From the NCBI RefSeq assembly GCF_003987395.1, contig NZ_PIPT01000006.1, forward strand, positions 173,637 through 237,636: a stretch of DNA of 64,000 nt, in the 5' to 3' direction. Position numbers and translations under genes: made by a program. Of the stretch, positions 18,918 to 26,961 are shown piece by piece. The stretch comes from Pseudidiomarina aquimaris. GTDB taxonomy: Bacteria > Pseudomonadota > Gammaproteobacteria > Enterobacterales > Alteromonadaceae. Within the stretch, counting starts at the first letter, position 1. Each line of letters starts with the position of its first letter. Under the pieces are notes generated by a model. That model had not been told where the DNA came from. It searched no databases and worked only from the letters and a program-made list of their open reading frames with translations.

Positions 18918-18946
18918 CGCCTGTTGGTAGTTGGTTTTGAATGATG

Positions 18947-18975
18947 AATGCCCTCCGCTTGGAGGGCATTTTTGT
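18947..18975 (+). terminator. Rho-independent terminator after gcvP
   Basis: Perfect 10-bp stem AATGCCCTCC / GGAGGGCATT with a 4-base loop (18947-18970) followed by a T run. It ends the gcv cluster 30 bp after the gcvP stop. Confidence 0.92.
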
Positions 18976-19083
18976 TTGTGGGGGTTGGTAAGCAGATATT
19001 GTCCACTATGACTTTTGTGTAATTGCGCACACGGAATTAAGAAGCTAGCTTAATATTTTTAAGCCTTACAGGGAGTGTTCGTT

Positions 19084-19401
19084 GTGAAGTGGCTTCTCAT
19101 TGCATTAGTTAGTATTTTGACTTTTTACTCACCGACAGCAGAGAGCTGCTCATTTCGCATTAAAGGTGGCGACCTCATTCGTTGTGGCATGACTAAAATT
19201 GAAGTCATGGACAAAATCGGCAACCCCGACATGCGCGATCGACAATCTGTTGGCGTCAATACCGGATTCGGCCGTGGCGGCAGATCCGCCGAAGCATGGT
19301 CTTACATCGTACGCGGCGACATCGGCGGTGAGTACTACCTAACCGTTCTATTTTCGGGCAGTAAAGTTGTGGAGATTGAATCGCGGCAGGCGCGTTGGTA
19401 G
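19084..19401 (+). CDS. DUF2845-type small secreted protein
   Basis: A 105-residue protein with an N-terminal signal peptide (about 20 hydrophobic residues ending near TAES) and a short domain resembling DUF2845: CSFRIKGGDLIRCGMTKIEV, GNPDMRD, an AWSYI strand and a C-terminal FSGSKVVEIES strand. GTG at 19084 is taken as the start because GGGAG lies 8 bases upstream; the GTG at 19075 overlaps that site. Probably periplasmic, with two cysteines that could pair. Function unknown. Confidence 0.7.
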   Translation: MKWLLIALVSILTFYSPTAESCSFRIKGGDLIRCGMTKIEVMDKIGNPDMRDRQSVGVNTGFGRGGRSAEAWSYIVRGDIGGEYYLTVLFSGSKVVEIESRQARW

Positions 19402-19402
19402 T

Positions 19403-19426
19403 GTCGGCTTTGAGCGAAGAGCGGAC
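19403..19426. repeat. Short palindromic element (GTCGGCT / AGCGGAC)
   Basis: GTCGGCT and AGCGGAC, complementary at 6 of 7 positions, enclose 10 bases right after the DUF2845 stop. The same outer arms recur in a longer element at 20209-20277. This points to a repeat family or a degenerate copy, but it has no T run and is not an obvious terminator. Confidence 0.5.
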
Positions 19427-19545
19427 GTTGACTTGTTCTTATATGTTCGTCCGTTTCAGACAAATTGCGGACCTTCAACGCCGCCTTAAGCTGCGCGAGC
19501 GTCGGGCGACCGAAGGGAGCGTAATTGATGGCTTGGTTATGCTTA

Positions 19546-20103
19546 TTATAGGTCTACTGCGTCCTGAACTACTTCAGACCAAGATTTATTGGAATGCCAC
19601 TCATCGTACTTTACCATTATTGGCAAGTAATGCTCTGGAATGTCTGATTCTGGCGCGTTGCTATACACATACGCCATACCTTCTCTAAACCATTCAGGTT
19701 TCATCATGGTCGAAACAGGGCCAATCTCATAAAATTGGAACCAATGAACCAATTCGTGCTGAGTGATGTAACGTTGCCACGATTCAGGAGCTATAACCGT
19801 ACCGAGAAACGGATAAGAAATCGCTCGCTCATTTCCTCCACCAAACGACTGGTAGCACTCTACAGTAGAGCAATAAACAAACGTGGGGCTAGCTCTAAGT
19901 GGAAGTCGAGCTGCAGAGATGTTCTTTACCGCAGAGCCATAAAGTTCAATAGCCTGATCCATCCCCCTCGTATCCTCCACGCACACTGAGCCGTTGCACG
20001 TCACTCCATTTAAATGAGGCAGAAGTAACCTTAACGGCTTTGCATATGACCAAGCGAGCGCTGGAATTAACGCAATTACTAAAACCATAAATAGTTTTCG
20101 CAT
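19546..20103 (-). CDS. Secreted HExxH metalloprotease-like protein
   Basis: A 185-residue exported protein with a signal peptide (MRKLFMVLVIALIPALAWS). It has a zinc-protease type HELVH motif at 116-120 and a downstream glutamate in FREGMAYVYS (141), the spacing of gluzincin-like enzymes in which two histidines and a glutamate hold zinc. Two pairs of cysteines (36/41 and 78/83) may form disulfides. It is much shorter than typical thermolysin-like enzymes, so it may be a minimal peptidase-MA-like domain. AAGGA precedes the ATG. Catalysis is inferred from the motif only. Confidence 0.75.
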   Translation of the reverse strand: MRKLFMVLVIALIPALAWSYAKPLRLLLPHLNGVTCNGSVCVEDTRGMDQAIELYGSAVKNISAARLPLRASPTFVYCSTVECYQSFGGGNERAISYPFLGTVIAPESWQRYITQHELVHWFQFYEIGPVSTMMKPEWFREGMAYVYSNAPESDIPEHYLPIMVKYDEWHSNKSWSEVVQDAVDL

Positions 20104-20106
20104 CAC

Positions 20107-20692
20107 ACTGAGTCCTTATGCATAACAGCTTATTACTAAGACTTCATAGTAGCACTCGTTTCCCCTTAGAAACCATATTCTTTGTTTTCTTAGGAAGGAA
20201 TCTGAAATGTCGGCTTTACGTACTAAGCTGCCCTCGCGAAATAAATTAGAGGCGGCAGCTGTTGGCACATAGCGGACGACCAAGTTTAAGCACCCAAGGA
20301 ATAATCAGAAAATGCATTCTCACTCGCAGAAAGTTCAGATTGTCCACTTCCCCATTAGTGAGACGTTCTAAACTCGACTGTTCCGATAATTGGGTCTAGA
20401 CCGAAGATTGTGGCAAATCACTAATAGGTTCATGCGGGCTTTCATCGGAGTAATTGATGCGATTTCGCATGCTCGCGAGAATAACCCAAATAAGCACGCA
20501 TCGAGAAATCCTAGCCGAAAGGTTTCAACGAACGAAAAAGCCTACGTTTCAAAAGACCGCTCAATCCCCTAGCTCTCTTCATATTTGCTTACAGTATGTG
20601 AGCTTTGTCGTATTGACACATGCGCAATTATTGTTCACATTTAATTACAAAAGCGTACGTAATTTTTACACAAACCTTGGTTGGTAAAACGA
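20107..20692. other. 586-bp stretch without a convincing gene
   Basis: No frame here has a plausible start, Shine-Dalgarno site and protein-like composition. It holds the 69-bp nested palindrome described separately. A TTGACA box (20613-20618), about 75 bp before the first pilin gene, is not followed by a good -10 at 16-18 bp (CACATT at 17 bp), so the pilin promoter remains uncertain. The DNA is more A+T-rich than its surroundings. Confidence 0.6.
20209..20277. repeat. 69-bp nested palindromic element
   Basis: Outer arms GTCGGCT (20209-20215) and AGCGGAC (20271-20277) enclose perfect inner arms AGCTGCC (20226-20232) and GGCAGCT (20254-20260). Folded, this gives a two-tier hairpin with an A+T-rich tip. 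The outer arms are shared with the short element at 19403-19426. Confidence 0.6.
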
Positions 20693-21115
20693 ATGACAGG
20701 CAGATGCAGGGTGTGGCAGTCGGGCTTTACGCTGGTAGAGCTAATGATTGTCGCGGCGATTGTGGCTATTTTGGCTGCGGTCGCCTTACCTAATTATAAA
20801 GATTATGTGGAACGTGGTTACGTGACCACCGCCAGCGCAGACCTTGTGGCACTGAGTCTTGCGTTGACGAATCGGTTCCAACGCCAGCTCAGTTATCCAA
20901 CCGTTACGACGACTTCAACTGCAGATACTAAAAGTGAGGTGACCGGTTGGGCGCCCGCTGAAACGCAGTATTTCGATTTCACCATGGCCTCAACCACAGC
21001 TGGGTATACCTTGACCGCGACAGGTAAAGGTCGCCTCGATGGTTGTACTTTAACCTTGCAAGATGACAACACACGCAGCATTTCAGGCGATTGCGCGGGA
21101 GTTGAATCATGGTAA
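20693..21115 (+). CDS. pilE: Type IV pilin, PilE-like minor pilin
   Basis: Prepilin of 140 residues. The leader MTGRCRVWQSG ends in the glycine cut by prepilin peptidase PilD, followed by the methylated phenylalanine and the conserved FTLVELM with Glu5. The hydrophobic N-terminal helix continues to about residue 32 (ALPNYKDYV). Two cysteines in the C-terminal half (DGCTL and SGDCAG) fit the pilin disulfide loop. The ATG at 20693 is used; an in-frame TTG at 20681 is possible and no strong Shine-Dalgarno site marks either. First gene of a five-gene minor pilin cluster, overlapping the next by 7 bp. Confidence 0.85.
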   Translation: MTGRCRVWQSGFTLVELMIVAAIVAILAAVALPNYKDYVERGYVTTASADLVALSLALTNRFQRQLSYPTVTTTSTADTKSEVTGWAPAETQYFDFTMASTTAGYTLTATGKGRLDGCTLTLQDDNTRSISGDCAGVESW

Positions 21116-21585
21116 ATCAGCGTGCTTTCTCATTAATTGAACTGCTAGTGGTGGTGACCATTGTCGGCATCCTTATTTTAGTGGCGATACCTTTTACGCG
21201 TGGCTGGAATGATAGTGCCCAAGTGGCGGAAGCCGAATCGATTTTGAAGCGCGCGGTTGGCAAGGCGCAGGCAGTGGCATTGCGCAATCCCACTGGCAGT
21301 GACGCCAGTGCGGCCGCTGCGGGCGTAAAGCAAACCGGTACGACGCTGTTAGTCTGCGAAGGAAGCCCGACATCTGCCAGTTGCAGTGCGGCCGGCAGTG
21401 CACTGATTTGGCGTGAAGAGTTACCCGCCGGTGTAACGCTCAATGTAGAAGGTGCCGCTTTAGCAACCATCGCGATGAATAATCGCGGCCGTATCATCAA
21501 CGGTAGCGGCCAAGTCCAAGTCCTTAATTACACCGTGGCCCGTGGGGAGGTGCGTGATGATGACGCGAATAACCGTCTCTACTAG
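21109..21585 (+). CDS. fimT: FimT/FimU-type minor pilin
   Basis: A 158-residue GspH/FimT-family minor pilin. The N-terminal helix FSLIELLVVVTIVGILILVAIP is canonical with Glu5, but the residue before the cut is alanine (NQRA/FSLIE) instead of the usual glycine. Two cysteines (VCEGS, ASCSA) lie close together in the middle. FimT/FimU pilins help prime type IV pilus assembly, and some bind DNA for uptake. It overlaps both the previous pilin gene and the next. Confidence 0.85.
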   Translation: MVNQRAFSLIELLVVVTIVGILILVAIPFTRGWNDSAQVAEAESILKRAVGKAQAVALRNPTGSDASAAAAGVKQTGTTLLVCEGSPTSASCSAAGSALIWREELPAGVTLNVEGAALATIAMNNRGRIINGSGQVQVLNYTVARGEVRDDDANNRLY

Positions 21586-21982
21586 TCAGCACAAACAAAA
21601 AGGTATGACGCTCATCGAGGCGCTGGTTGCGGCAGTGCTACTCGGTATCATCCTCTTAGGGCTTACCTACGCGTTGTCGCGAGCAATCGTGAGCCAGCGC
21701 TACACCGAAACGCAAAGTCTTTGGCTACAAGAAACCCGAGAGAATCTGCAAGGTGTTGGCCTGGAGCGTATCTGCGCTCAGGGTGAAACTCCACAAGCGG
21801 TCACGAACTTGCCAACGAATGTAGCGGCCACGGCGCAATGTATTAATGCTGACGTTGAAGTGTCAGTACCGGGGTTGGAACGCACGATTGCCAGCTCGCG
21901 CTTGCAATTGACCACAGCGAACACAGCGCAAAACCAATCACTTTTTGGCGGTGATGGTGAATTGCTGTTCACTGAGAACTAA
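21557..21982 (+). CDS. pilV: Minor pilin PilV
   Basis: A 141-residue type IV minor pilin with leader ending KQKG and mature start MTLIEALVAAVLLGIILLG, with Glu5 present. Position between FimT- and PilW-like genes and the ALVAAVLLGI helix match PilV. The ATG at 21557 was chosen because a strong GGGGAGG (21544-21550) lies 6 bases upstream; it overlaps the end of the preceding gene by 29 bp. Two cysteines (ERICAQG, AQCINA) may pair. Confidence 0.85.
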   Translation: MMTRITVSTSQHKQKGMTLIEALVAAVLLGIILLGLTYALSRAIVSQRYTETQSLWLQETRENLQGVGLERICAQGETPQAVTNLPTNVAATAQCINADVEVSVPGLERTIASSRLQLTTANTAQNQSLFGGDGELLFTEN

Positions 21983-21994
21983 GGAACCAAGACG

Positions 21995-22720
21995 ATGATG
22001 CAACAGACGCAACGCGGTGTTTCCTTAATCAGCTTACTGGTGGGCTTAGTTATTGCTTCCATCGTGGTCTTAGCGATGATGACTGTCTACCAAACCAGTG
22101 TGCGCGCAATGGCGACTTCGGCGGAGTCGGCGCGCTTGCATAGTGAGAGCTTGGCCAGTCTGCTGACCACACATTTGAGTATTCAAGGTGCCGGTTTCGG
22201 CGTACCGCCACAGGAGCTTGCCGATAATCCAGAATCAGCAATCGACCTAAATGCCGCGCATTTTAATGGCGCCGGTAAACTCGTGCCCGGCGGCGCAGGT
22301 ACCGCTTTGGTCTGGCGCGTCGGTATTGATACGAATAATGATTTTTTTGCTGATAGCTACCAGTGCGAAGGCCTCTATGTCAGTGCCGACCGCGGAATCG
22401 TGCAGTTGGTCAGCTCAGATAATTGCGCCACTGCGCGCAGCAATACCTGGCCAAGTAAGAACTGGGTTCAGTTACCTTTGCTCGAGCCTTCGCGTTTGGT
22501 ATCCCCAAGTGGCGAGGCGCCGGTAATTGCCAACTTTTTCATGCGTATGGACGACCGCGATCCGCCTTGCTCGCCTTATGGAGTAAGCGCGACGACAAGC
22601 TCTGAAGGAGTGTTGGGGCGTCGTTCCGTCACTATCGGCTATCAACGTTTGGTGGACGGTACGAATCAAACGGTGGCAAGTACGACTTGCTTAGTCAACT
22701 TATTACCGGAGGACGCCTAA
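21995..22720 (+). CDS. pilW: PilW-like minor pilin with altered N-terminus
   Basis: A 241-residue prepilin-like protein. The leader ends in TQRG and the helix is VSLISLLVGLVIASIVVLAMM, so position 5 is serine instead of the near-universal glutamate. Position and size match PilW, which with PilV, PilX and FimU forms the priming complex at the pilus tip. Cysteines occur in pairs (YQCEG, DNCAT, PPCSP, TTCLV). The stop is followed directly by the start of the next gene. Loss of Glu5 is seen in tip pilins such as GspK, so this one may sit at the tip. Confidence 0.8.
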   Translation: MMQQTQRGVSLISLLVGLVIASIVVLAMMTVYQTSVRAMATSAESARLHSESLASLLTTHLSIQGAGFGVPPQELADNPESAIDLNAAHFNGAGKLVPGGAGTALVWRVGIDTNNDFFADSYQCEGLYVSADRGIVQLVSSDNCATARSNTWPSKNWVQLPLLEPSRLVSPSGEAPVIANFFMRMDDRDPPCSPYGVSATTSSEGVLGRRSVTIGYQRLVDGTNQTVASTTCLVNLLPEDA

Positions 22721-24763
22721 ATGACTCGTCTACGTCAGCAAGAAGGTGCTGCAGCGGTATTGTTGTTGTTAGTCGTGAGCTTAGCAATTGTCGCCGCGGT
22801 ATTTGTTGGCATGCGGCAAATATCGGTGTCGCAAGACAAAACTCAAGCATTGCACGCACAAAGCCAAGCGCAGCTCAAAGCATGGCGCGGCGCCGATGTT
22901 GTCTATGATTATTTTCACCAACTGACTGTTACCGAGGGCAATAGCTGGGCCGATCTTGAAGTCGAGCTGAGTAACGCCATTAGTTCGACCAATGTAAGTG
23001 AAGCCGACATTCTCGATGGTGATCCTGCTGCCTTTATTCGTGCAGTCACCACCCCTGACCCGAACCTTGATGAGCACTATGTAACAGTCGATATCGTGGC
23101 TTCCTCAGGTACCGGCGGGCCTGCGGCAGCAACCTCGACTTTGCGCTTGGTCTACTTGTTGGCTGGGCCAGGTAGTGTCGGCGGAGGTAATGGTTTACCT
23201 TCAGTCATCACCTTTAATCGTAACCTTAATCTGCGCGGCAATATCGATGTTGTCACCGAAGACGACCAAGAATATGTGGTGAATGTGAAAGGGGACGTCA
23301 CCACCCAAGGCAACAGTATTCGCGGTATCGATACGATTAACGCAGACGGTTCGATTGAAATTGGTAGTGGCTCCTCGTTCAACAATCTCAACGCCAACGG
23401 TGACATTAAACTTACCGGTAGTGTTTCGGGTGAACAAAACCTAACAGCGCTCGGAGATATTTGTATCACCGGTGGTGCCTCTGCGATGGGCACGGTGAAG
23501 GCAAACGGTTCAGTGGTTGGCTCCGGCAGCGCGAGTTATGGTGACGTAACGGCAATAGGTAAAAGTGACAACCTCTTTCATACCTTGTTATGCCGTCCTA
23601 TAGGTGACGATCGCAACGGCGACATCATTGCAGTCGACTTGCGCAATAATGCGTCGGCGATTTCCGTTAAGAGTGGCGGGACTGTGCAACTTAACTCTGG
23701 CGACATTGGGAGTTTGCAGGGCGAAGCTGATCTCATCACCCTAAACTGGGGCGGCAACGTTGATGGTGTAATCAAAGGAAACTTTTACAACTACGGTAAC
23801 CCAGCGATGGATAACCGGGTGACGCGCAACCCTAATTTAAGTTTAGGGCTCACTCCGCTCGACCCGTTGATTGTCGATACCGCAACTTTCAATGCTTACC
23901 AGTATGAATCCGAGGCGAACTACGTTTTCCGTATGGCCAACAACGACATGAAAGTTGAAGTGAAAAATGTCGAGGGCATCCCCGATGGTGAGTATTTCTT
24001 AGGCGACAATACCGGTGTGCAAGGGCCGAAAAAAGATCGCCTTTGCCAAAACAAAAATTGTAGCGGCCAATCTTTTGCCCTGTGCCGAGGTCACTCAGAC
24101 TGGAATAACTGTTTTAGCTATCAGAAACAGCAGAATCGATGGGTGATAAACGGCGTCAGTATGGCTCCTGGCGTAGCGCTTTTTGAGGGCAATCTGCGCT
24201 TGAGTAATGGTGTTTACTACAACACGTTCATTGCCACCGGTGATATTGAAACTTCAGGTAACCACGCGAACTACGCTCCCAACTATGCTGGTTACAGCGG
24301 TGAAGTTGACAACGTTGAGTACGCACCCAAAGGGGTTTGTACCAACCGTATCGTCGGTATGGCACCCAAGCAATTCTGTAAAGCCGACGGTAGCTTTGAT
24401 ACAGAAGCTTCAAATGGCTTAGGAAATTACGCTTATATGGCTGGTAGTGAAGTCAACCAGACCTATGTCGGCGGCAATATTGAGCTCGGTGCTTCAACGC
24501 GCTCACATGGTAATGTGCTCGCGGGTAACGAATTCCAGAGTGGCGGTAACACTGAAGTGCACGGATATATCAGTGCTTTAGCGCAGGGCGCACCAAGCTT
24601 TAATGATATGGGCGGCAGCACCAGTATTATCTTACGTGACTTACCGCCAACCTTCACTCCAGGCAGTGCGCTCAATCCAGGAAATGGCGGCGGTAATAAT
24701 GGTGGTGGCGGAAGCGCTGGCGCCCTCGATAGAGTGGTATTAGTATGGAGTCGTTATTTATAA
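22721..24763 (+). CDS. Very large PilX-like pilus protein with repetitive beta-rich body
   Basis: A 680-residue protein at the PilX position. Residues 1-45 resemble the PilX N-terminus: a leader ending in EG and a hydrophobic helix AAAVLLLLVVSLAIVAAVFVG without Glu5. PilX of Pseudomonas is under 200 residues; here about 500 residues are added. From roughly 165 to 340 the sequence is a series of short Gly/Asn/Asp/Val-rich strands (GNIDVVTED, VNVKGDVTTQG, INADGSIEIGSG, NANGDIKLTGS), like the polymer-forming beta-solenoids of bactofilins, recurring near 590-630 (VGGNIELGAST, NTEVHGYIS). A cysteine-rich segment lies near 445-470 and a glycine-rich tail near 655. It may be a tip adhesin replacing PilY1, which is absent here; that role is inference. 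Confidence 0.75.
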   Translation: MTRLRQQEGAAAVLLLLVVSLAIVAAVFVGMRQISVSQDKTQALHAQSQAQLKAWRGADVVYDYFHQLTVTEGNSWADLEVELSNAISSTNVSEADILDGDPAAFIRAVTTPDPNLDEHYVTVDIVASSGTGGPAAATSTLRLVYLLAGPGSVGGGNGLPSVITFNRNLNLRGNIDVVTEDDQEYVVNVKGDVTTQGNSIRGIDTINADGSIEIGSGSSFNNLNANGDIKLTGSVSGEQNLTALGDICITGGASAMGTVKANGSVVGSGSASYGDVTAIGKSDNLFHTLLCRPIGDDRNGDIIAVDLRNNASAISVKSGGTVQLNSGDIGSLQGEADLITLNWGGNVDGVIKGNFYNYGNPAMDNRVTRNPNLSLGLTPLDPLIVDTATFNAYQYESEANYVFRMANNDMKVEVKNVEGIPDGEYFLGDNTGVQGPKKDRLCQNKNCSGQSFALCRGHSDWNNCFSYQKQQNRWVINGVSMAPGVALFEGNLRLSNGVYYNTFIATGDIETSGNHANYAPNYAGYSGEVDNVEYAPKGVCTNRIVGMAPKQFCKADGSFDTEASNGLGNYAYMAGSEVNQTYVGGNIELGASTRSHGNVLAGNEFQSGGNTEVHGYISALAQGAPSFNDMGGSTSIILRDLPPTFTPGSALNPGNGGGNNGGGGSAGALDRVVLVWSRYL

Positions 24764-24768
24764 GTTAG

Positions 24769-26961
24769 TTGGGAGTAGAAGCGATCAAACAGGTCGACAT
24801 CGATAAAGCTTTCCATTTATTCGCAGCAAACCTTCGCGAGGCGCGAGAGCTTGAATTCATTGAGAATCTGACCAAGTTGCTGAGTCGGCTGCTTGGTGCT
24901 GATCACGTCATGGTCTCAGAAATCTTTGAAGATGCACCGGATACCGCACATGTGGTGGCTTTCTATTCCAACGGCGAACTACAACAGCCGGTAAGCTATA
25001 ACTTAGTCGGTTCACCATGTGAAAAGGTTTTGAGCGCGGACTCGTGCGTTTTTAATGAAGGTGTGTGCGAGTCATTCCCACACGACGAAATGCTGCAAGA
25101 GTTAGGGGCGGCAAGCTATATCGGTGTTCCCATGCTTACCGCCGATCAAAATAAGCTTGGCCTGCTTGCCGTCCTGAATGACACCCCTACCGACTATTCA
25201 TCAACAGTATTTGAGCTATTACAGGTCGCAGCAGCGCAAGCGGCGGCAGAGCTTGCTCAGCTGCGTATCACGCGCAATCTTCAAGAAAGCCAACGTCGCC
25301 TCGAAACGCTCATGAATTCCCTACCCGGAATGGCGTATCGCTGTAAAAACGACGAGCTCTGGAGTATGGAAATTGTCAGCCGTGGCGCACTGGATTTAAC
25401 TGGTTACCAACCGCAAGATCTCATTAATAACAGTCGGATTGCTTGGGGTGAATTGATTCACCCAGAAGATCGTGAGCTCGTGCAGCAAGGGGGCGACGAT
25501 GCCACCAAGCGGGGTCAGTATTTTCGTTTGGCCTATCGGATTATCTGTGCCGATGAGAGCATTCGTTGGGTATGGGAGCAGGGCAAAGGTATTGCCAATG
25601 ACCAAGGCGAGGTCACGCATTTCGAGGGTTTCATCCTAGACGTGACGGAGCAACATCAGCATCAAGAGCACATTGCCGAGATTGCCTTCCGCGATGAACT
25701 GACAGGCCTTGCGAATCGCGCGGGGCTCCTCGACTTTCTTGAAAGCCAATATGAACAAAATGGCGAGCAAGATTACCTATTAGTCTTGCTCGATGTGCGT
25801 TACTTTCGCAGTATAAACGAGCGTTTTGGGCTCCATGCTGGAGACCGTCTACTCAGTATTGTTGCCGAGCGACTGCGAGACGGCGCTCGCGACTTCCAGG
25901 ACATCGTCATGTTAGCGCGGATAACAGGCGATGAGTTCGTAGTGGTTGTGAAAACTAATGCGTTAAAAGCTGAGCAATTCATGACGGTCGCCAACAACCT
26001 AAAATCCTGCTTCGAAGACTCAATTTTGCTAGGCGAGCATAAATGGGACGTGGAGTTACGTATCAGTGGCGCATTTTCATACAATGCGGATTCGGCCGCT
26101 GAATTGCTGCAGCAAGCAAGTATTGCCATGCACGAGGCGAAACAACACGAACTCCTCTACTGCATTTTTGATGAGGGCTTAGAGCGCAAGGTTTCTGCTG
26201 AGCGACACCGCACCGAGCGCTTTCTTAAAGCGCTGCGTGAGGACAAGTTAAGCATTTACTTACAACCGCTGATTTGCCTAAGCGACAATCAATGTGTTGG
26301 CGCAGAAGTTTTATGTCGATGGTTTGATGATGAACTCGGAGCTGTGAGCCCTGACGTTTTCATCGACATTGCGCGCAAGCAAGGAGTATTGCCGGAGCTG
26401 GGCTCACAGGTTTTAACCAAAACCTGCGAGCAGCTAAGACGTTGGCAATACGACGGTTTCGAACTGCCTTATGTCTCAGTGAATGTCGGCGCGCAACAGT
26501 TCGCCGCGCCCGATGTGGTCGATGATTTTCTTTCGACCTGTGCAGGGCTCGACACGCAGCTCATCACCTTAGAAATTACCGAAAGTGACCTGATGCTGGA
26601 TCCGCAGTTAGCGCTGACGGTCACCGGACGGTTACGCGACCATGGATTTCGCCTAGCCATTGATGACTTTGGTACCGGTTACTCGTCGCTCGCCTATTTA
26701 CAGCAATTTTCAGTCGATATCTTAAAAATAGATATGAGCTTTGTGCATGAAATGCTCCGTGATGCTTCAAGCAAAACACTGATCAATACGATTATTGCGA
26801 TGGCTCGTTCGCTGGATCTGGTAACGATTGCGGAAGGCGTTGAAACGGAACAGCAAGCCCAGGCACTAAAACAGCTTGGCTGCGAGTATGGGCAAGGCTA
26901 TTATTTTGCTCACCCCATGTCGCCCGAAGATTTCGCTAAGACTTGGTTACAACAACAATAA
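24769..26961 (+). CDS. GAF-PAS-GGDEF-EAL c-di-GMP signalling protein
   Basis: Cytoplasmic sensor of 730 residues: GAF (about 25-165), PAS (about 175-305), GGDEF (about 310-465) and EAL (about 480-725). The cyclase motif reads TGDEF, with the first glycine replaced, so synthesis may be weak or absent. The phosphodiesterase half looks active: EVL in place of EAL, then ITESDLM, IDDFGTGYSSL, KID and EGVET. It most likely degrades c-di-GMP under GAF/PAS control. It starts 6 bp after the pilin operon, so it may tune pilus function. The start is unclear: TTG at 24769 lies before the only GGGAG, and no ATG or GTG follows until inside the GAF domain. Confidence 0.88.
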   Translation: MGVEAIKQVDIDKAFHLFAANLREARELEFIENLTKLLSRLLGADHVMVSEIFEDAPDTAHVVAFYSNGELQQPVSYNLVGSPCEKVLSADSCVFNEGVCESFPHDEMLQELGAASYIGVPMLTADQNKLGLLAVLNDTPTDYSSTVFELLQVAAAQAAAELAQLRITRNLQESQRRLETLMNSLPGMAYRCKNDELWSMEIVSRGALDLTGYQPQDLINNSRIAWGELIHPEDRELVQQGGDDATKRGQYFRLAYRIICADESIRWVWEQGKGIANDQGEVTHFEGFILDVTEQHQHQEHIAEIAFRDELTGLANRAGLLDFLESQYEQNGEQDYLLVLLDVRYFRSINERFGLHAGDRLLSIVAERLRDGARDFQDIVMLARITGDEFVVVVKTNALKAEQFMTVANNLKSCFEDSILLGEHKWDVELRISGAFSYNADSAAELLQQASIAMHEAKQHELLYCIFDEGLERKVSAERHRTERFLKALREDKLSIYLQPLICLSDNQCVGAEVLCRWFDDELGAVSPDVFIDIARKQGVLPELGSQVLTKTCEQLRRWQYDGFELPYVSVNVGAQQFAAPDVVDDFLSTCAGLDTQLITLEITESDLMLDPQLALTVTGRLRDHGFRLAIDDFGTGYSSLAYLQQFSVDILKIDMSFVHEMLRDASSKTLINTIIAMARSLDLVTIAEGVETEQQAQALKQLGCEYGQGYYFAHPMSPEDFAKTWLQQQ

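What the first reader, a model, noticed from the sequence alone, without database searches (positions are those of the whole stretch)
22721..24763. Giant PilX-like pilus protein with a beta-solenoid-like body
The gene at the PilX position encodes 680 residues instead of under 200. Only the first 45 or so look like PilX; the rest has short repeating Gly/Asn/Asp-rich strands like bactofilin-type beta-solenoids, a cysteine-rich segment and a glycine-rich tail. PilY1, the usual tip adhesin, is missing from this cluster. A minor pilin fused to its own adhesin-like rod would be an uncommon way to build a pilus tip.
Basis: partly seen in the sequence, partly recalled or inferred. Interest (0 to 1): 0.7.

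Follow-up and report, generated by a model that had tools for sequence, protein, structure and literature searches.

The report
Pilus-tip pilin with inserted beta-solenoid
A rare, patchily distributed five-gene pilin cassette encodes a 680-residue pilin that is predicted to carry a large beta-solenoid inserted into its pilin fold and that would likely sit at the tip of a type IV pilus as an adhesin, built like the known Thermus pilin ComZ.

Summary
The gene is real and conserved (45 relatives, 31-98% identity). Two AlphaFold models, of the window protein and of a 31%-identical relative, agree: pilin helix, three strands, a beta-solenoid of about 480 residues, a Gly-rich linker, one last strand (W[SAT]RY). 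That is the layout of ComZ, the solenoid pilin of Thermus and best Foldseek match of both models; solenoids of tapirins (adhesins) score highest in the second alignment.

It is not simply a PilY1 substitute: PilY1 is undetected in all 26 searched genomes of the genus, 23 of which also lack this gene, and 16 of 21 giant-bearing genomes do have PilY1. The giant ends a pilE-fimT-pilV-pilW-giant cassette (same order in 17 of 21 related loci) found in 3 of 26 congeners; here it lies in an interval that is empty or holds other genes in congeners. Unlike PilY1-linked pilin sets of the same genomes, cassette FimTs lack the C-terminal DNA-binding motif, and most cassette PilWs, like the giant, lack Glu5. 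I read it as an accessory tip cassette, likely adhesive rather than DNA-binding. New variant of a known kind.

The parts
20681..21115 (+). PilE/ComP-like pilin, first gene of the cassette (mature part from 20726, Glu5 present)
   Evidence: Pfam ComP_DUS E 4.9e-10, N_methyl E 3.4e-7; cassette order
21109..21585 (+). FimT/GspH-like minor pilin, Glu5 present, no C-terminal G[RK]x[RK] motif
   Evidence: N_methyl E 1.3e-7; motif check
21542..21982 (+). PilV-like minor pilin, Glu5 present (listed start is a mechanical GTG; cleavage Gly at 21602)
   Evidence: TIGR02523 PilV E 7.7e-5, below its cut-off
21995..22720 (+). PilW-like minor pilin with Ser instead of Glu at mature position 5
   Evidence: named by place
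22721..24763 (+). the giant pilin (680 aa)
22721..22747 (+). leader peptide, residues 1-9, ending in the Gly of the expected prepilin-peptidase site (G9 kept in 90% or more of rows)
22748..23164 (+). pilin module: long N-terminal helix (to residue 71) and three strands (103-148); Leu at mature position 5
   Evidence: AlphaFold model
23201..24640 (+). predicted beta-solenoid module, residues 161-640
24044..24112 (+). conserved Cys segment (C442, C455, C464), probably disulfide-bonded (inference)
24641..24727 (+). variable, partly Gly-rich linker, residues 641-669
24728..24760 (+). predicted last strand, residues 670-680 (DRVVLVWSRYL)
   Evidence: same in the relative
24769..26961 (+). GAF-PAS-GGDEF-EAL gene just downstream; marks the edge of the variable interval, not a conserved part of the cassette

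Best explanation
The gene encodes an outsized minor pilin that is predicted to carry a beta-solenoid inserted before the last strand of its pilin fold, and that would likely cap a type IV pilus and act there as a tip adhesin. Likely working: the prepilin peptidase cuts after Gly9; the giant, lacking Glu5, is the first subunit of the tip complex; the cassette's PilV-, PilW-, FimT- and PilE-like pilins would join it to a filament built by a machine encoded elsewhere; the acidic, probably disulfide-braced solenoid would bind a surface or polysaccharide, and pilus retraction would pull the cell to it. The cassette is an accessory: it is absent from most congeners searched, and in most other genomes where it was found a PilY1 gene exists as well. 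Shown here: gene, cassette, conservation, distribution, motif differences. Predicted: fold and topology. Inferred: processing, tip location, adhesion, ligand.
Confidence: 0.55

Rival explanations
1. It is a tip-associated DNA receptor for natural transformation, as proposed for ComZ: the solenoid binds DNA and retraction brings it to the cell.
For: Same predicted layout and best Foldseek match, ComZ; ComZ also sits with four pilin genes (PMC6561018, section 6); the first cassette gene matches the ComP_DUS family, though that family matches the PilE of the genome's other set more strongly.
Against: The C-terminal DNA-binding motif is found in 0 of 20 cassette FimTs, against 8 of 14 FimT-like pilins near PilY1 in the same genomes; solenoid net negative in 40 of 46 rows; patchy presence, 3 of 26 congeners.
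Confidence: 0.25
2. It replaces PilY1: the genus lost PilY1 and this pilin carries the adhesin role instead.
For: No PilY1 match in this genome and none in the cluster.
Against: 0 of 26 congeners have a PilY1 match and 23 of these also lack the giant; 16 of 21 giant-bearing genomes have PilY1.
Confidence: 0.07
3. It is a structural primer or pseudopilus cap (GspK-like) for a secretion-type filament and does not bind an outside ligand itself.
For: E5-less cap place; GspK is the closest pilin fold to ComZ's pilin module (PMC6561018, section 7); the genome seems to have two T2SS-like sets.
Against: Six of the seven solenoid-region segments have mean conservation 0.53-0.65, like the N-terminal helix (0.59) and above the pilin strands (0.43); the seventh, 281-300, has 0.36. 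This suggests a function of the solenoid itself. The T2SS-like sets have GspK-like genes of their own (by recall).
Confidence: 0.13

Closest known systems
ComZ of Thermus thermophilus (PDB 6qvi; PMC6561018: abstract, sections 6 and 7 and part 1 of section 12 read)
   Same: Large E5-less pilin with a beta-solenoid before the last pilin strand, encoded with four other pilins; best Foldseek match of both models.
   Different: No detectable sequence similarity; found in Pseudomonadota; conserved cysteines; cassette FimT without the DNA motif; DNA binding untested.
Tapirin C-terminal domains of Caldicellulosiruptor (4wa0, 6n2b, 6n2c); role in attachment from a search listing only (PMC9933333) and recall
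   Different: Only C-terminal domains are in the lists; whether tapirins have a pilin module was not tested here; no sequence match.
Modular pilins such as PilB and PilC of Streptococcus sanguinis (PMC8179133, passages)
   Same: A functional module grafted on a pilin for display by the filament.
   Different: There the module follows the pilin; here it is predicted to be inserted, and it is a solenoid.
PilX and GspK, the E5-less tip pilins
   Same: Place in the operon and absence of Glu5.
   Different: 680 residues; PilX_N matches 0 of 46 members; extra module is beta, not alpha as in GspK (PMC6561018, section 7).
PilY1/PilC tip adhesin
   Same: Would share the adhesin role at the tip.
   Different: No PF05567 match; PilY1 also present in 16 of 21 giant-bearing genomes.

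Membership tests
ComZ-type solenoid pilin | Pilin N-terminus (leader ending in Gly, long hydrophobic helix) without Glu5 | tested here: met
   G9 in 90% or more of rows; position 5 of the giant is Leu, Met or Ile in 18 of the 19 loci whose site one search listed (L021's listed site is shifted by one); helix 8-71
ComZ-type solenoid pilin | Beta-solenoid placed before the last pilin strand | tested here: met
   Predicted in two models: solenoid 161-637 then strand 671-679; 152-595 then 618-626. Strand partner not read.
ComZ-type solenoid pilin | Overall fold match to ComZ | tested here: met
   Foldseek rank 1, E 2.8e-4 and 9.2e-6; but TM 0.21-0.29 and VIA rank 5 and 7
ComZ-type solenoid pilin | Sequence similarity to ComZ | tested here: not met
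   No ComZ chain at E <= 10 with the sequence or the 46-row profile. So not filed as a ComZ orthologue; it is built like ComZ.
ComZ-type solenoid pilin | DNA binding and role in transformation | not testable with these tools
   Only indirect signs, against
PilX | PilX_N profile PF14341 | tested here: not met
   No match at E <= 1 for P0001, 0 of 46 members at E <= 0.01
PilX | Place after pilW in a minor pilin operon and no Glu5 | tested here: met
Bactofilin | PF04519 match | tested here: not met
   P0001 none at E <= 1; 1 of 46 members, E 0.006
PilY1 | PF05567 domain | tested here: not met
   No match at E <= 1
Modular pilin | Pilin module plus a separate functional module | tested here: inconclusive
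   Two-module architecture predicted; function of the module untested
Tapirin | Tapirin C-terminal solenoid fold | tested here: inconclusive

The most novel reading that the evidence does not exclude
A swappable pilus-tip cassette: five pilins that travel together and re-cap the host's pilus with a ComZ-like solenoid adhesin, using a tip architecture with two subunits that lack Glu5 (the giant and the PilW-like pilin) where known tip complexes have one.
Probability: 0.35. Interest if true: 0.7.

Novelty: new variant of a known kind. Interest (0 to 1): 0.5.

Why it matters
ComZ is a structural oddity from Thermus. A family with no detectable sequence similarity to it but the same predicted layout, in Pseudomonadota, suggests that putting a solenoid into an E5-less tip pilin is a recurrent design. 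Because the cassette is present in some and absent from other members of one genus, and occurs together with PilY1 elsewhere, what a tip complex adds to a pilus could be tested by comparing related hosts with and without it. A second E5-less subunit would challenge the idea that only the cap lacks Glu5.

Tried and rejected
PilX filing: rejected, PilX_N not matched. Bactofilin and FapA filing: rejected; FapA matches 14 of 46 members (best E 1.4e-4), Bactofilin one (E 0.006), and for P0001 FapA scored 13.9 bits against a cut-off of 31; read as generic solenoid signal. PDB by sequence: nothing of use. NCBIfam: no match for P0001. PilY1 in the own genome: PF05567 and a Craterilacuibacter PilY1 both empty. 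The 14 control genomes gave none either, and warns of this, so the positive control is (16 of 21). GGDEF-EAL gene as part of the cassette: rejected; L072 carries the cassette without it, L068 and L069 carry it without the cassette.

Counts and dropped rows. Cassette order in 17 of 21 loci (L002, L004-L014, L016, L019-L022; in L019 PilW, and in L008 PilE, were seen by tblastn); L003, L015 and L018 are cut by a contig or locus end and L017 has another order. L021's giant is in two reading frames in that MAG and was left as it is. PilW position 5, window plus 20 loci: Ser 18, Gly 1 (L019), Glu 2 (L010, L017); L015 has none. For L006, L013 and L020 one search listed a site one codon earlier; I placed the cut at the Gly before ESL. 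PilW beside PilY1: Glu5 in 13 of 13 found, from 12 genomes; 19 stretches were fetched and six gave no PilW by my motif scan (L076, L077, L078, L080, L091, L092). That scan favours sites with Glu5, and PilW was named by place and length, not by a profile. FimT control: 14 proteins from 13 stretches, L081 (cut) left out. Fisher tests ignore kinship. In one search the printed pos5 of own2 pilE, own2 fimT and L016 pilV is off by my slicing and was not used. Of nine congener stretches, L067 ends before gcvP and L070 and L071 show only a 46-47% match, perhaps a paralogue, without the other genes; these three were not counted for the site.

Papers: no description of this family seen in the searches (open-licence library only; an accented spelling of tapirin cannot be searched).

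Full report
WHAT IS THERE. The ORF at 22721-24763 (+) encodes 680 residues and ends a run of five pilin genes: PilE/ComP-like (20681), FimT-like (21109), PilV-like (21542), PilW-like (21995) and the giant. A protein search gave 45 relatives at E <= 0.001, 31-98% identical and mostly full length; only the 7990 candidates sharing most words were scored. P0005, from Pseudidiomarina salilacus, is named there 'DUF4097 family beta strand repeat-containing protein'. A scan of GTDB genomes gave 21 loci, by their titles all Pseudomonadota (only one peptide pattern was used, so a lower bound). The window genome belongs to the genus of P. sediminum (inference: G132 of that genus and L002 of P. sediminum carry the gene at about the same contig place).

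ANATOMY. AlphaFold on the window protein with a 46-row alignment gives mean pLDDT 81.5, pTM 0.69: helix 8-71, strands 103-110, 118-128, 138-148, many short strands 161-637, a low-confidence Gly-rich linker, and a strand 671-679. A relative of 627 residues and 31% identity, with a 50-row alignment of largely the same family, gives pLDDT 88.8, pTM 0.72 and the same order: helix 10-75, strands 91-102, 108-119, 122-133, solenoid 152-595, strand 618-626. The stretch before the last strand varies in length, yet the chain ends in W[SAT]RY plus one residue in 42 of 46 rows. The simplest reading is that the chain returns to the pilin sheet after the solenoid, so that the solenoid is inserted, not appended. 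The strand partner was not read from coordinates.

CASSETTE. All five genes stand in the same order in 17 of 21 related loci; three more are cut by an end and one has another order. The neighbours outside the cassette differ between lineages. In a tree of 21 giants, gamma- and betaproteobacterial rows mix: the three Pseudidiomarina rows group with Porticoccaceae (96/96), next to Thioflavicoccus with a Variovorax MAG (95/97).

SITE. In this genus 3 of 26 genomes have the giant, in a family sample 1 of 98, in a class sample 2 of 369, one of these over profile positions 7-274 only; the own genome is counted in each. In the window the cassette lies between gcvP and a GGDEF-EAL gene. In two congeners these two genes are about 130 bases apart (L068, L069); in three, other genes lie between them (L064, L065, L066). 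In L072 the cassette lies between gcvP and the transporter gene, and the GGDEF-EAL gene is not there. In L002 the downstream side is as in the window, but gcvP is not in the 22-kb locus. So this is a variable interval and the cassette one of several contents.

PILY1 AND OTHER PILIN SETS. PF05567 gives no match in the own genome (99.99% complete) nor in any of 26 congeners, 23 of them at least 90% complete, while it matches in 16 of 21 giant-bearing genomes reached through the loci (five without, some of them MAGs). So neither lack nor presence of PilY1 goes with the giant. The own genome has a second minor-pilin set on contig C18, beside what looks like ispH: PilE, FimT, PilW, a 371-aa PilX_N-like protein (24.4 bits, 20.6, cut-off 25.5) and a 645-aa PilV-like pilin, again without PilY1. 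It also seems to have MSHA, two T2SS-like sets and a pilA-pilB-pilC locus (names from recall of the sequences).

TWO SIGNATURES. (1) FimT carries the motif G-[R/K]-x-[R/K], important for DNA binding, in competence pili (PMC12040237, passages). It is absent from the last 45 residues of 20 of 20 cassette FimTs (matches further upstream in L019 and L022), present within the last 25 residues in 8 of 14 FimT-like pilins near PilY1 in the same genomes, and present as GRVR in the FimT of this genome's C18 set. (2) The PilW-like pilin lacks Glu5 in 19 of 21 cassettes, window included (Ser in 18, Gly in one), while PilW beside PilY1 has Glu5 in 13 of 13 found. The giant lacks Glu5 too. In two modelled competence tip complexes one pilin lacks E5 and is the predicted cap. 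Fisher tests give p 1.7e-4 and 1.1e-7, without correction for kinship.

HOW IT LIKELY WORKS. Inferred: cut after Gly9, the giant starts the tip complex, the cassette pilins adapt it to a filament made by a machine encoded elsewhere, and the solenoid, net negative in 40 of 46 rows and in a protein with seven near-invariant cysteines, binds a surface or polysaccharide. The DNA-receptor rival stays open because ComZ binds DNA without an evident positive patch.

VERDICT. Observation confirmed with two corrections; interpretation partly supported; new variant of a known kind.

Noticed in passing
L024:6150-10832 (own genome C18:39149-43831): Second minor-pilin set with a 371-aa PilX_N-like protein and a 645-aa PilV-like pilin with a large C-terminal extension, no PilY1 beside it; the long PilV may be another modular pilin.
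   Followed up: partly
window 18918-20680; L064:4600-7840, L065:4579-9969, L066:4539-8085: The interval between gcvP and the GGDEF-EAL gene differs between congeners; L064 has what looks (by recall) like an XRE-regulator/PIN-type pair, L066 sugar- or cell-surface-type genes; GC of the interval 0.42-0.50.
   Followed up: partly
PilW-like genes of the cassette, e.g. window 21995-22720: Ser (or Gly) instead of Glu at mature position 5 in 19 of 21 cassettes, not explained by a tip with one E5-less cap.
   Followed up: yes
L017:8168-18497: Craterilacuibacter has a rearranged set with the giant directly beside a full fimT-pilV-pilW-pilX-pilY1 cluster, and its PilV-like pilin has Gly at position 5.
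   Followed up: partly
L045 (own genome C21:134000-149000): A second T2SS-like pilin and ATPase cluster next to genes that look like a YjbEFGH-type exopolysaccharide set (recalled resemblance).
   Followed up: no
window 19546-20106 (-): 186-aa ORF with a signal-like N-terminus and an HExxH motif (HELVH), possibly a metallopeptidase.
   Followed up: no
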